64,000 nucleotides of DNA, from NCBI RefSeq assembly GCF_032854445.1, contig NC_088299.1, positions 13,385,608-13,449,607 on the forward strand, given 5' to 3'. Positions 30,297 to 35,059 of this stretch are shown one piece after another. Origin of the DNA: Liolophura sinensis (lineage: Eukaryota; Mollusca; Polyplacophora; Chitonida; Chitonidae). Every line of letters starts with the position of its first letter. Positions within the stretch are counted from its first letter, which is position 1. A program made the position numbers and the translations under genes. A model generated the notes under the pieces. It made no database searches. It had not been told where the DNA came from and saw nothing but the letters and a program-made list of their open reading frames with translations.

Positions 30297-30366
30297 AGAG
30301 AGAAAAAATTTGATCTAATTTAACTGAAAACTCTAAGTTATACAATTCAGCCAATTCAACAGCTCG

Positions 30367-30481
30367 GTAAAGTTGGCACAAGATTCCAACACAACATTCA
30401 GCACCATATTCGCCAGAATGCAGCTCTTGCAGCTGCGAATATGGAACTGAATGTTGTGTTGCAATATTGTGTCAACTTTAC
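30367..30481. repeat. 115 bp palindrome in the left arm
   Basis: Arms 30367-30413 and 30435-30481 are inverted copies with few mismatches, around a 21-base centre containing CAGCTCTTGCAGCTG. The inner 27 bases pair at 25 positions. The homologue in the right arm is at 34879-34993. Confidence 0.9.
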
Positions 30482-30879
30482 TTTGTAAAACAACATTCAG
30501 ATGGTTATAGACACATCTTGTGCACGAACGTGACATTTATAATAGCATGCTATTTAAATAGTTAACAGTTCGTTCAAAGAGACATAAATTTCATTATTAC
30601 TTAAAACATAAGATATATTTTGACATTTCGAACGAGTTTAGTGCCCAAAATACCTTTTGAAATGGGTATTCTTTTACCTATAGCCGGCCCTAGCAGTACA
30701 TTTCTAACATGCAGTCAAAATCCTACAGGCTGTGAAGTAAATATGGATCAAATCAGCAACTGGCGACAGTGCCTAATGGCATTTCGTTTGCAACATAACT
30801 CAAACTGCACATGTATGTAAAGATGCATAGTTGTGGTCAGGAAACCAGTTGTCACGACAGATGCAGCGCAAGTAGCAGA

Positions 30880-33160
30880 CGTTTAGTAATGGGTAATAAA
30901 GGATAGCAGCTTTTTTACTGTTTGTATTTAATGCCATTTTTAGACTGCCGCCAACATGCCTAGGTATCAAAAATGTCCTCTAAAATTCATTTTACGAGGA
31001 AGATACCTGACTGAAAGGTATCATTTTACAGATAAAAAACATACAGTGCAACTGGCAGACGCCCTGGAAAGGCGATAAAACGACAGCACGTTGTTCATTC
31101 GTAACATTCAACGCAATCTCAAACCGTCTCCAATTACTTGCTATGGTGTTAAAAATGTCTTCTTTAAAGTGCCATTACCTTATTTTATTATTGACCTTAG
31201 AGTACAATTTTAAGGTTAGAAAACATACACAATTTTAAGGTTAGAAAACATACACAATTTTAAGGTCAGAAAACATACACAATTTTAAGGTCAGAAAACA
31301 TACACAATTTTAAGGTTAGAAAAAATACACAATTTTAAGGTTAGAAAACATACACAATTTTAAGGTCAGAAAACATACACAATTTTAAGGTTAGAAAACA
31401 TACACAATTTTAAGGTCAGAAAACATACACAATTTTAAGTACAATTTTAAGGCCAGAAAACATACACAATTTTAAGGTTAGAAAACATACACAATTTTAA
31501 GGTCAGAAAACATACACAATATTAAGGTTAGAAAACATACACAATTTTAAGGTCAGAAAACATACACAATTTTAAGGTTAGAAAACATACACTATAAGGC
31601 GCAGACGCCCTAAAAAGGATTAAACGACCGTATGCTCTCCATTCTTAATATTCAGTGCCATCTTAGACCGTCTCCAACATGCCTAGGTGTCAAAATTGTC
31701 CTCTAAAACTTCATTTTACGAGACAGATACCTGACTGAAAGGTACAATTTTATAGTCAAAAACCATACAGTGCAAGTCGCAGACGCCCTGGAAAGCCGAT
31801 TAAATGACAATGTGGTGTTCATTCCTTGTACTTAATGCCATCTTAGACCGTCTGCTACTTGCTACGGTGTCAAAATGCTTTGTCAAAAATGAAATTAGCC
31901 TAGATTAAAACAGACTTTACAGGACCACTTGTAGGGTCACAAAGCATACAGTGCAAATCGCAGGCGCCCTGAAAAGGCATTCTTAGTATTTAATGCCATC
32001 TTAGACCATCTGCTAACTGATACGGTGTCAAAAATGCTTTCTCAAAAATGCCATTTGCTTAGTTCAAAACAGGCTTTATACGGCCACTTATAGGGTCAGA
32101 AAACATACAGTGCAGACGCCCTGGTCAGGCGACTAAACGACAGGATGTTGTTCATTTGTAATATTTAATGCCATCTTAAACCGTCTGCTACTTGCTACTT
32201 TGTGAAAAATGCCTTCTCAAGAATGCCATTTGCTTAGTTCAAAACAGGCTTTATACGGCCACTTATAGGGTCAGAAAACATACAGTGCAAGTCGCAGACG
32301 CCCTGGTCAGGCGATTAAACGACAGGATGTTGTTCATTTGTAATATTTAATGCCATCTTAAACCGTCTGCTACTTGCTACTTTGTGAAAAATGCCTTCTT
32401 AAAAATGCAATTTGCTTAGTTCAAAACAGGCTTTATAAGGCCACTTATAGGGTCAGAAAACATACAGTGCAAGTCGCAGACGCCCTGGTCAGGCGATTAA
32501 ACGACAGGATGTTGTTCATTTGTAATATTTAATACCACCTTAGACCGTCTGCTACTTGCTACTGTGGCAAAAAAGCTTTCTCAAAAATGCAATTTGCTTA
32601 GTTCAAAACAGGCTTTATAAGGCCACTTATAGGGTCAGAAAACATACAGTGCAAGTCGCAGACGCCCTGGTCAGGCGATTAAACGACAGGATGTTGTTCA
32701 TTTGTAATATTTAATACCACCTTAGACCGTCTGCTACTTGCTACTGTGGCAAAAAAGCTTTCTCAAAAATGCCATTTGCTTAGTTTAAAACAGGCTTTAT
32801 AAGGCCACTTGTAAGGTCAGAAAACACACAGTGCAAGTCGCAGACGCCCTGGAAAGGCAATTAAACGACAGTATGGTGTTCATTCTTATATTCAAAGCCA
32901 TTTTAGACCGTCTGCTACTTGCTACGGTGTCAAAAATTTCTTCTCATGAATGCCATTTGCTTAGTTTAAAACAGGTTTTATATGCCCACTTATAGAGTCA
33001 CAAAGCAAGTCGCAGACGCCCTGGAAAGGCGATTAAACGACAGCATGTTGTTCATGTTTAATATTTAATGCCATCTTAGACCGTCTGCTGTTTGGTACGG
33101 TGGCAAAAATGCCTTCTCAAAAATGTATTTAGTTCAAAACAGGCTTTAGAGGGCCACTTA
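30880..33160 (+). repeat. Direct array of about 180 bp units (left arm)
   Basis: Each unit contains CAAGTCGCAGACGCCCTGG, GATTAAACGACAG, CATCTTAGACCGTCTGCTAC and AAACAGGCTTTATA. The GACGCCCTG landmark recurs near 31060, 31603, 31782, 31961, 32111, 32292, 32478, 32659, 32840 and 33013. Central units are the most alike. Confidence 0.92.
31203..31596. repeat. 25 bp tandem array nested in the foldback element
   Basis: About 15 copies of ACAATTTTAAGGTTAGAAAA plus CATAC, with T/C variation in GGTTAG/GGTCAG. The unit corresponds to a segment of the surrounding 180 bp repeat (ACAATTTTATAGTCAAAAAC then CATAC near 31745), so it is a local amplification of part of that repeat. Confidence 0.93.
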
Positions 33161-33164
33161 TAAG

Positions 33165-33700
33165 GTCTAAATGGCATGAATATTAAGAATGAACAACATA
33201 CTGTCATTTAATTGCATTTCCAGAGCGTCTGGGACTTGTACTGTATGTTTTTTGACCCTATTAGCGGCCCTATATAGCCTGTTTTGAACTAAGCAAATGA
33301 CATTTTTGAGATGGCATTTTTGACACCGTAGCAAGTAGCAGACGGTCTAAGATGGTATTAAATATGTCTACGAGTTACACTGTATGTTTTCTGACCCTAT
33401 ATGTGGCCCTTTAAAACCTGTTTTGATGTAAGCAAATGGCATTTTTGAGAAGGCATTTTTGACACTATAGCAAGTTGGAGACGGTTTAAGATACTGTTGT
33501 TTAATCGCCTTTCCAGGGCGTCTGCGACTTGCACTAGTCAGGTATCTTTCTCGTATAATGAATTTTTAGAGGACACTTTTGACACCTAGGCTTGTTGGAG
33601 ACGGTCTAAGATGGCATTGGATATAAAGATTAAACAAGATACTGTCCTTTATTGCCCATTACTGAACGTCTGCGACTTGCGTTGCATCTGTTGTCACTCC
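33165..33700 (-). repeat. Inverted array of the same units (right arm)
   Basis: The same landmarks appear on the opposite strand: CCAGGGCGTCTGCGACTTG near 33513 and AGACGGTCTAAGATGG near 33340 and 33600. There are about three units against about ten on the left, so the arms are unequal. Confidence 0.9.
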
Positions 33701-34322
33701 TGGTTTCCTGACCACAACTATGCACCTTTACATATATGTTGTTATGACCCAAACTGTCTGTATTATAAAGAGATGGCTTGTTCGAAATACACGACAGTTT
33801 AGCTGCACAAAAAAGTAACCAAAACCAGCAGAGTTTATTTTACAACAATTTATTAGGTTTAACAAGAACAGATAACAAGACTCATACAAATACTAAAGTG
33901 CTTAAGTTTAACAAGAAAGGATAGCAATATCTATACAAATACTAAAGTACTTACATGTACAACGGTGTCAAGTCCAAACGGACGCATATATTCCACAATG
34001 CTGAAAACTACTAAGGCACAAATGCACAGAGGCAATATTCACAAGAGGGAAAATCCACAGTATAACTGAGTGTGTGACGAAATATACACAAAATTCCACA
34101 GACAGGGTCCGTGTACTAATAAGCACCGTGTACACAAGAGCACAAATTAAATATACAAGTTCAGACTGAACAAGTGCTCGGTGGAGATATGATATAACAA
34201 AGCCAGAGGCTATAAAGACACCAAAATTCAGCACAAAAGGCCTACTAAAGTAATACACAGCGAAAGCATCCAAAACTCTCAATAACTTTCCTTTCTCCTC
34301 GTTTTGACTTGCTTTCATAGGT

Positions 34323-34330
34323 CTTATATA
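34323..34330 (-). promoter_or_regulatory. TATA box of the heat-shock module
   Basis: TATATAAG on the minus strand directly follows the proximal heat-shock element, the order seen in hsp70-type promoters. The predicted start is near 34293. Confidence 0.65.
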
Positions 34331-34337
34331 GACTGGT

Positions 34338-34367
34338 GGAATTTTCTAGAATAAGAAAATTCTTCAA
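34338..34367. promoter_or_regulatory. Heat-shock element, perfect three-unit plus flanking units (proximal)
   Basis: GGAATTTTCTAGAAT at 34338-34352 fits nGAAnnTTCnnGAAn exactly. GAAAATTCTTCAA at 34355-34367 continues the pattern with one imperfect unit. It ends about 8 bp from the TATA box. Confidence 0.78.
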
Positions 34368-34403
34368 CACTTGTTGTAAACAAACAGGCCCCGAACTGAG
34401 CGA

Positions 34404-34418
34404 ATTCTGGAACATTCT
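34404..34418. promoter_or_regulatory. Heat-shock element, perfect three-unit (distal)
   Basis: ATTCTGGAACATTCT fits nTTCnnGAAnnTTCn exactly. HSF1-type trimers bind such arrays. It lies about 75 bp upstream of the TATA box, on the minus-strand reading. Confidence 0.75.
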
Positions 34419-35059
34419 AAGGCAGAGGCAGACAGCAGGCCCTTAACTCAGCATATGTAAACAGTGGCAAGCTAAATTCAGAAGCTGACGGCAGTTGTTC
34501 ACATAATAATGCACAGTTTTACTTATGTTGCAAACGAACTGCCCTTTGACACTGTGGCAAATTGCTGACTGGATGAATATCCAGTAAAGGACCTTTAGGA
34601 CTTGAACTGACCGTAGAAATGTACCTCTAGGGCCGGTTACAGTTTCAAGAACACCCATTTCAAGAAGGTATTTTGGACACTAAAATCGTTTGAAATGCGA
34701 AAATATATCTTATGTTTCCAACATTGTAGGCTTGCAGTAATAATGAAATCTGTGCCGATTTGGATGAAGTGTTAACTACCTAAATAGAAAGCCATTATAC
34801 ATTATTATTAACTATTATTAACCATGTAACATTTATGTACAATATGTACCTATAACCATCTGAATGTTGTTTTACAAAGTAAAGTTGGCACAATATTGCA
34901 ACACAACATTCAGCTCCATATTGGCAGCTGAACGAGCTGCATTCTGGGGAATGTGGTGTTGAATGTTTTGTTGGAATCTTCTGCCAACTTTACCGAGCTC
35001 AATTCAACCCAGAAAGCGGAGTCATATAACCAGATCAGCTGTCATGAAACTCATCTGGT

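What the first reader, a model, noticed from the sequence alone, without database searches (positions are those of the whole stretch)
33738..34505. A heat-shock promoter module carried inside one arm of the foldback element
Seen: a segment without a left-arm partner holds two perfect three-unit heat-shock elements (34338-34352 and 34404-34418), a TATATAAG box 8 bp beyond the first, and AATAAA signals about 450 bp on. The order HSE-HSE-TATA is that of hsp70-type promoters. The only frame starts upstream of the predicted start site, so any RNA is probably non-coding. Inference: a mobile element that captured a heat-inducible transcription unit could spread stress-responsive promoters, or be mobilised or silenced under heat.
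Basis: partly seen in the sequence, partly recalled or inferred. Interest (0 to 1): 0.8.

Follow-up and report, generated by a model that had tools for sequence, protein, structure and literature searches.

The report
Heat-shock promoter in a chiton retrotransposon
The segment is a leftover end (solo LTR) of a retrotransposon whose own promoter carries binding sites for the heat-shock factor, and hundreds of copies of it are spread through the genome of a rocky-shore chiton; heat response itself has not been tested.

Summary
The segment is a solo LTR (33740-34508, minus strand) of a Ty3/gypsy-type retrotransposon that inserted into a foldback arm, leaving a 4-bp target duplication; the left arm still shows the empty site. 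Contig lengths point to the intertidal chiton Liolophura sinensis, published as L. japonica. 586 places share exact flanks of the distal heat-shock element (HSE2). One copy encodes integrase upstream of reverse transcriptase, the Gmr1-clade order. The U3 holds an HSF-type promoter: up to three perfect HSEs plus TATA; the window copy keeps two and lost the third by one base. Exact-flank counts give this family at least 1,349 of the genome's 9,490 perfect three-unit HSEs; the whole excess over a reversed-pattern control is 1,369. Against function: HSE2 is no better kept than a control LTR site (456/586 vs 477/579), HSE1 is imperfect in the subfamily that looks younger, and there are no expression data. 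Against the five host hsp70 promoters only short words match. It works like ONSEN; heat induction is inferred.

The parts
33740..34508 (-). solo LTR, 769 bp (U3-R-U5 on the minus strand); its minus-strand 5' end reads TA where the other printed copies mostly read TG; 3' end ...TAACA
   Evidence: ends shared by copies L002-L024; directly read
33736..33739 (.). target-site duplication, left copy (ATGT)
   Evidence: 4-bp overlap against the empty left arm; family duplication of 4 bp or more in 13 of 17 LTR pairs
34509..34512 (.). target-site duplication, right copy (ATGC, one mismatch)
34404..34418 (-). distal HSE (HSE2), perfect three units nGAAnnTTCnnGAAn
   Evidence: perfect in 50 of 54 aligned LTRs
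34338..34352 (-). proximal HSE (HSE1), perfect three units nTTCnnGAAnnTTCn
   Evidence: perfect in 20 of 54 aligned LTRs, 0 of 16 in subfamily B
34354..34368 (-). third HSE (HSE1b), TTCnnGAAnnTTC in most aligned copies, one base off here (TTG at 34365-34367)
   Evidence: perfect in 43 of 54 by column; 42 by pattern
34323..34330 (-). TATA box TATATAAG
   Evidence: TATATAAG or a close form in 42 of 54 copies, any TATA in 48 of 54
33834..33854 (-). two AATAAA poly(A) signals (33849-33854, 33834-33839); R/U5 boundary expected just beyond
   Evidence: the boundary is inference
30799..30821 (.). empty site in the left foldback arm that pairs with the two LTR flanks

Best explanation
The segment is a solo LTR (presumably left by LTR-LTR recombination) of a Ty3/gypsy-type retrotransposon with the Gmr1-like domain order, integrase before reverse transcriptase, in the chiton Liolophura sinensis. 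Its U3 is an HSF-type promoter: in the family, up to three perfect heat-shock elements sit upstream of a TATA box. In intact copies, stress-activated HSF trimers would bind these sites and raise transcription of the element from about 30 bp past the TATA box; the transcript would end at the AATAAA signals in the 3' LTR. A solo copy like this one can at most make a short (about 450-nt) poly(A) non-coding RNA or act as a heat-responsive promoter or enhancer for its surroundings. Shown: solo LTR, target duplication, family, copy number, domain order in one copy, HSE and TATA positions. Inferred: HSF binding, heat induction, start site, origin by recombination. The solo-LTR part is about 0.98 likely; HSF-driven activity of source copies about 0.6.
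For: LTR ends, 4-bp duplication and empty site. L005 is an element with two LTRs; on its minus strand a tRNA-Pro-like primer-binding site follows the LTR after two or three bases (the tRNA assignment is recalled from MLV). Genome-wide: 43 exact LTR-PBS junctions, control 0, and 95 polypurine-LTR junctions with up to 1 mismatch, control 2. Integrase H2C2 and rve upstream of RVT_1 and RNase H on one strand of one copy. HSEs in 54 LTRs: HSE2 50, HSE1 20, HSE1b 43 and at least two sites 45 by column (42 and 43 by pattern). In the 54-copy alignment only 1.6% of 746 slid placements are as well kept as the HSE2 core. Exact-flank counts 456, 672 and 221 sum to 1,349 of 9,490 perfect HSEs genome-wide; reversed-pattern control 8,121. 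A sister family with the same PBS has unrelated LTRs; none of 8 loci looked at has a perfect three-unit HSE.
Against: No expression or HSF-binding data. Genome-wide, HSE2 is intact in 456 of 586 flank-anchored places and a control site in the same LTR in 477 of 579 (Fisher P 0.056, in the control's favour), so copies show no selection for the HSE. HSE1 core conservation is ordinary (0.911 against a mean of 0.963; 90% of placements as good or better); its GAA is GAC in most subfamily-B copies and in some of A, 0 of 16 B copies have it perfect, and B looks younger by LTR divergence (median 0.015, 11 pairs, against 0.030, 6 pairs). HSE1b and TATA columns are no better kept than average.
Confidence: 0.65

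Rival explanations
1. The HSEs are vestigial: present in an ancestral LTR by chance or past use, copied by descent, and no longer important for element transcription.
For: HSE2 decays like a control site; HSE1 is imperfect in the subfamily that looks younger; enrichment in the alignment is limited to HSE2.
Against: Up to three perfect HSEs and a TATA box within about 100 bp are unlikely by chance (about 0.0096 perfect HSEs expected per 769 bp); HSE2 and HSE1b are kept by column in 37 and 29 of 38 subfamily-A copies and in 14 and 14 of 16 B copies.
Confidence: 0.22
2. The promoter uses HSF, but mainly for germline or developmental HSF activity rather than for heat; the HSEs serve to be transcribed where new insertions are inherited.
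For: Consistent with the same anatomy; HSF roles in animal gametogenesis are recalled knowledge. Nothing here tells it from heat induction.
Against: No expression data for either.
Confidence: 0.1
3. One reading: the foldback element captured a heat-inducible transcription unit and carries it as cargo.
For: The segment does lie inside one arm and has no partner in the other.
Against: Precise LTR ends, own target duplication and empty site; hundreds of copies elsewhere; 0 of 133 flank pieces (30-300 bases, some of them inner sides of elements) match the foldback. Other foldback copies in the genome were not searched for.
Confidence: 0.01
4. The U3 is a captured piece of a host hsp70 promoter.
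For: Same motif classes; a 12-bp exact word with one of five hsp70 promoters (E 0.11).
Against: No alignment beyond short words with any of the five hsp70 promoters; different spacing (host: one perfect HSE about 140 bp before TATAAA). Promoters of other heat-shock genes were not tested.
Confidence: 0.02

Closest known systems
ONSEN (COPIA78) of Arabidopsis and other heat-responsive Brassicaceae COPIA families (PMC3907296, passages; PMC5059998, abstract)
   Same: LTR retrotransposon whose LTR carries HSF-binding sites; PMC5059998 reports heat response correlated with high-affinity HREs in LTRs.
   Different: Ty1/copia in plants, with induction, HSFA2 binding and extrachromosomal DNA shown; here Ty3/gypsy-type in a mollusc, and nothing shown beyond sequence.
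Helitron-borne HSEs of Caenorhabditis (PMC6927752, abstract and passages)
   Same: An animal transposon that supplies a large share of the genome's HSEs.
   Different: A DNA transposon with HSF-1 ChIP and expression data; here an LTR with its own TATA promoter, at least 14% of perfect three-unit HSEs, and no functional data.
DIRS-1 of Dictyostelium (Zuker et al. 1984, known here only from a passage and reference in PMC2685390)
   Same: Retrotransposon with a heat-shock promoter in its terminal repeats.
   Different: Inverted terminal repeats (passage) and a tyrosine recombinase (abstract starts); here an rve-integrase LTR element.
Drosophila copia (Strand and McDonald 1985, known here only from passages and reference in PMC3907296)
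   Same: Animal LTR retrotransposon with heat-shock consensus sequences in its promoter and raised expression in heat.
   Different: PMC3907296 says it lacks the further nGAAn units needed for high-affinity HSF binding; this family has up to nine units in three sites.
Gmr1 clade of Ty3/gypsy elements (PMC6238403 and PMC8220671, passages)
   Same: Integrase upstream of reverse transcriptase in a gypsy-type pol.
   Different: No phylogeny was made here. No HSE-bearing Gmr1 element appeared among the papers listed, whose lists are capped.

Membership tests
LTR retrotransposon (solo LTR) | Precise shared ends TG...CA | tested here: met
   Printed copies mostly TGTTATGTG...GTAACA; window copy TA...CA, one substitution
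LTR retrotransposon (solo LTR) | Short target-site duplication of fixed length | tested here: met
   4 bp or more in 13 of 17 LTR pairs (4 unresolved); of 22 single LTR loci, ends found in 17, of which 11 have 4 bp or more and 6 do not; ATGT/ATGC in the window
LTR retrotransposon (solo LTR) | Full-length copies with two LTRs, PBS and polypurine tract | tested here: met
Gmr1 clade of Ty3/gypsy | Gypsy-type RT/RNase H with integrase upstream of RT | tested here: met
   One copy, C10:22044530-22049560, by Pfam domains
Gmr1 clade of Ty3/gypsy | Groups with Gmr1 elements in an RT tree | not tested
   No reference Gmr1 sequences were obtained
Heat-responsive LTR retrotransposon (ONSEN-like) | HSF-binding motifs (HSEs) in the U3 upstream of the core promoter | tested here: met
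   As sequence motifs only
Heat-responsive LTR retrotransposon (ONSEN-like) | Transcription induced by heat through HSF | not testable with these tools
   No RNA-seq or ChIP at hand
Heat-responsive LTR retrotransposon (ONSEN-like) | HSE kept by selection relative to the rest of the LTR | tested here: inconclusive
   HSE2 high in the 54-copy alignment but 456/586 vs control 477/579 genome-wide
Foldback cargo | Other copies of the segment lie within foldback sequence | tested here: not met
   0 of 133 flank pieces match the foldback at E 1e-5
Captured host hsp70 promoter | Sequence similarity to host hsp70 promoters beyond the HSE | tested here: not met
   Five promoters; best word 12 bp, E 0.11

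The most novel reading that the evidence does not exclude
In a rocky-shore chiton, one Ty3/gypsy retrotransposon family has scattered many hundreds of ready-made heat-shock promoters and by itself accounts for nearly the whole genome-wide excess of perfect heat-shock elements; some of these LTRs now drive host genes or non-coding RNA in heat, so the animal's heat-shock response has been partly rewired by an LTR family, as Helitrons did in Caenorhabditis.
Probability: 0.3. Interest if true: 0.75.

Novelty: new member of a known kind. Interest (0 to 1): 0.5.

Why it matters
Among the papers seen here, heat-responsive LTRs are described mainly from plants, and HSE-spreading transposons in animals from nematode Helitrons. 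A Ty3/gypsy family with an HSE array in an intertidal mollusc would be an animal counterpart of ONSEN, and makes a direct test possible: do genes next to these LTRs join the heat-shock response? The count (at least 14% of perfect three-unit HSEs in one family) is a concrete, checkable number.

Tried and rejected
Foldback cargo: rejected by the empty site, target duplications and flanks. The 133 flank pieces are 30-300 bases long; some are inner sides of elements or short outer flanks of the junction loci, so the number of independent outer flanks is smaller. Captured hsp70 promoter: no alignment beyond short words. Selection on HSEs in copies: the slide test on the alignment favoured HSE2 (1.6% of placements as good), but the genome-wide control did not; HSE1, HSE1b and TATA showed nothing. 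Three of the four subfamily differences that fall inside HSE footprints are at n positions and one is in a core (read); too few to count.

HSEs as a general feature of LTRs with this primer-binding site: rejected; of 8 loci looked at (five that align with each other over about 1 kb, L099 that shares only about 160 bases with them, and the single loci L101 and L102) none has a perfect three-unit HSE. L100 was a 25-base slip in a request and was not used.

Rows dropped or loose: of 43 junction LTRs, 13 aligned over less than 700 bp and were left out of the 54-copy alignment. L002-L024 come from the 40 best matches to the window, so subfamily A is over-represented. The 586 places include at least one that is plainly not an LTR (C1:26220747, seen among the 100 listed). 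The HSE1 and HSE2 true/false columns printed search 400 bases loosely and were not used. One search counted HSE1 in 19 of 54 by a sliced pattern that missed L042; searches give 20. HSE2 is 50 with spacing intact and 51 by column alone (L047 has an insertion in a spacer). The subfamily age comparison leaves out the L005 pair (98.9% identical) and counts as A two pairs (L064, L073) that have GAC in HSE1; the smallest A value (L047) rests on 377 bases.

Literature: word searches of an open-access library listed no report of HSEs in a mollusc or Gmr1-type LTR. Searches held 0 and 1 papers. Four lists are capped: 12 of 27, 12 of 102, 12 of 155, 8 of 83; for most listed papers only title and start of abstract were seen.

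Full report
WHAT IS THERE. The two perfect three-unit HSEs are real: cores at 34339-34351 and 34405-34417, the only two in the window. Chance gives 0.73-0.84 per window and two or more in 20-22 of 100 shuffles, so the number is ordinary; both within one 769-bp unit is unlikely (P about 5e-5, worked out after the fact). TATATAAG lies at 34323-34330 and AATAAA at 33849-33854 and 33834-33839, all on the minus strand. The longest minus-strand frame inside the unit (33968-34318) starts upstream of the inferred start site near 34300.

IT IS A SOLO LTR. A genome search scored 40 places (1,161 candidates), most of them matching from about base 2-3 to base 768 of the query. Fetched copies share sharp ends and differ outside them. 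The unit is 33740-34508. The inverted-repeat arms of the foldback stop at 33739 and resume at 34509 and overlap by 4 bp in the left arm (30809-30812). Joining the flanks and aligning them with the left arm gives the empty site with a 4-bp gap at the junction (99 of 120 columns identical): target duplication ATGT/ATGC. Of 17 LTR pairs, 13 have a duplication of 4 bp or more and 4 could not be resolved; of 22 single LTR loci, ends were found in 17, of which 11 have 4 bp or more and 6 do not. None of 133 flank pieces of other copies (30-300 bases, some of them inner sides of elements) matches the foldback, so the LTR got there by its own insertion and is not foldback cargo.

THE ELEMENT. L005 (C8) has two LTRs 98.9% identical. 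On its minus strand the LTR ends in GTAACA and, after two bases, runs into TTGGGGGCTTGTCCGGGA, like a tRNA-Pro primer-binding site (assignment recalled). So transcription runs in the same direction as HSE-TATA-AATAAA, as expected for U3-R-U5. There are 43 exact LTR-PBS junctions (control 0) and 95 polypurine-LTR junctions with up to one mismatch (control 2). A copy with a 5-kb internal part (C10) encodes, in order, a SCAN-like gag region, integrase zinc-binding and catalytic domains, then reverse transcriptase and RNase H; its integrase stretch matches foamy-virus and Ty3 integrases by sequence. In Ty3/gypsy elements this integrase-first order marks the Gmr1 clade (passages in PMC6238403, and PMC8220671); no tree was made. 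The 17 LTR pairs differ by 0.003-0.042 (JC on mismatches; some pairs aligned only in part).

THE HOST. Six contig lengths of G000 (96,433,062; 60,359,117; 58,388,612; 37,343,639; 25,057,479; 19,479,325) and the number 632 equal those of the published chiton assembly (passages of PMC11068029), since renamed Liolophura sinensis (PMC12441733, read whole). Two other pseudomolecules and the total differ slightly (for example 82,489,547 here against 82,493,220, and 609,464,459 against 609,495,693 in all), as a later trimmed version would. The window lies on its chromosome 13. It is an intertidal animal of East Asian rocky shores.

THE PROMOTER. In 54 LTRs (window, 23 loci from the best matches, 30 of 43 junction loci; 13 dropped as short), HSE2 is perfect in 50 and HSE1 in 20. 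A third site just upstream of HSE1, TTCnnGAAnnTTC, is perfect in 43 by column or 42 by pattern; the window copy has it with one base changed. Two or more sites are perfect in 45 of 54 by column, 43 by pattern. TATATAAG or a close form is present in 42 of 54, any TATA there in 48. Two subfamilies differ at 25 of 767 positions. Subfamily B (16 copies) mostly has GAC for GAA in HSE1, as do some A copies; B keeps HSE2 and HSE1b by column in 14 of 16 each. B looks younger by LTR pairs (median 0.015, 11 pairs, against 0.030, 6 pairs; L005, an A pair at about 0.011, is not in that sum), so the perfect HSE1 of the window may belong to the older group. CpG is low in the window LTR (3 seen, 8.5 expected in U3; 10 against 18.4 in R-U5), which fits decay of methylated copies as well as selection.

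GENOME-WIDE. With exact flanks, HSE2 is intact at 456 of 586 places, HSE1 is found at 221 and HSE1b at 672 (control 1): at least 1,349 sites, 14.2% of the 9,490 perfect three-unit HSEs in the genome. The reversed-pattern control gives 8,121, so the total excess is 1,369. The near equality may be partly luck: the control pattern is rough, and one tandem array adds 30 sites.

TESTS AGAINST. A nine-base control in the R region of the same LTR is intact at 477 of 579 places, slightly better than HSE2 (Fisher P 0.056). So copies decay as if neutral, and conservation reflects descent. In the 54-copy alignment HSE2 cores are among the best 1.6% of placements, but HSE1, HSE1b and TATA are not special. 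The five intronless hsp70 genes on C10 have one perfect HSE about 140 bp before TATAAA; the LTR shares only short words with their promoters, at best 12 bp, E 0.11. A sister family with the same primer-binding site has an unrelated LTR of about 1 kb; none of 8 loci looked at has a perfect HSE.

HOW IT MOST LIKELY WORKS. HSF trimers bind HSE2 and the HSE1b/HSE1 pair in heat or other proteotoxic stress, and Pol II starts past the TATA box; full elements make genomic RNA, while solo copies make a short non-coding poly(A) RNA or influence neighbours. Binding, induction and start site are inference. From the window copy, any read-through would run into the foldback's inverted repeats and could make a hairpin RNA; this is speculation.

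COMPARISON. It works like ONSEN, which has HREs in its LTR and HSFA2 binding (passages of PMC3907296), and other Brassicaceae COPIA families (abstract of PMC5059998). Caenorhabditis Helitrons spread HSEs (abstract and passages of PMC6927752). DIRS-1 has a heat-shock promoter in its terminal repeats (passage in PMC2685390). HSF binding in human Alu repeats also turned up (PMC3334603, listing only). What is new is the host group and element type, as far as the capped word searches show; the kind is known.

Noticed in passing
G000 C1:5808707-5810362: A tandem array holding 30 listed perfect HSEs (mostly GAACATTCAGGAA, spacing often 34 bp): an HSE-bearing satellite.
   Followed up: no
G000, e.g. 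L095-L098, L103: A second LTR family with the same tRNA-Pro-like primer-binding site and an LTR of about 1 kb (start not verified), no perfect HSE; roughly 100 junctions, by subtracting the first family's 43 from the 154, of which only 100 rows were listed.
   Followed up: partly
G000 C10:18983545-19050453: Five intronless hsp70 genes of 637 aa in a 67-kb cluster, two on one strand and three on the other, with similar promoters.
   Followed up: partly
L063, L068, L039: LTR variants of the family that lack about 280-500 bp between U3/R and U5 next to an intact primer-binding site; L038, L041, L051, L069 show only the U5-side part within the 865 bases fetched.
   Followed up: no
window 30361-34999: Foldback element with imperfect arms, a 25-bp array (31204-31592) and a 182-bp array (31987-33167) inside; outer arms 89% complementary.
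   Followed up: no
G000 C7:17379232-17391357 and C8:46358907-46364933: Primer-binding-site junctions of the sister family repeat every 6.0-6.05 kb, as if full elements lie in tandem.
   Followed up: no
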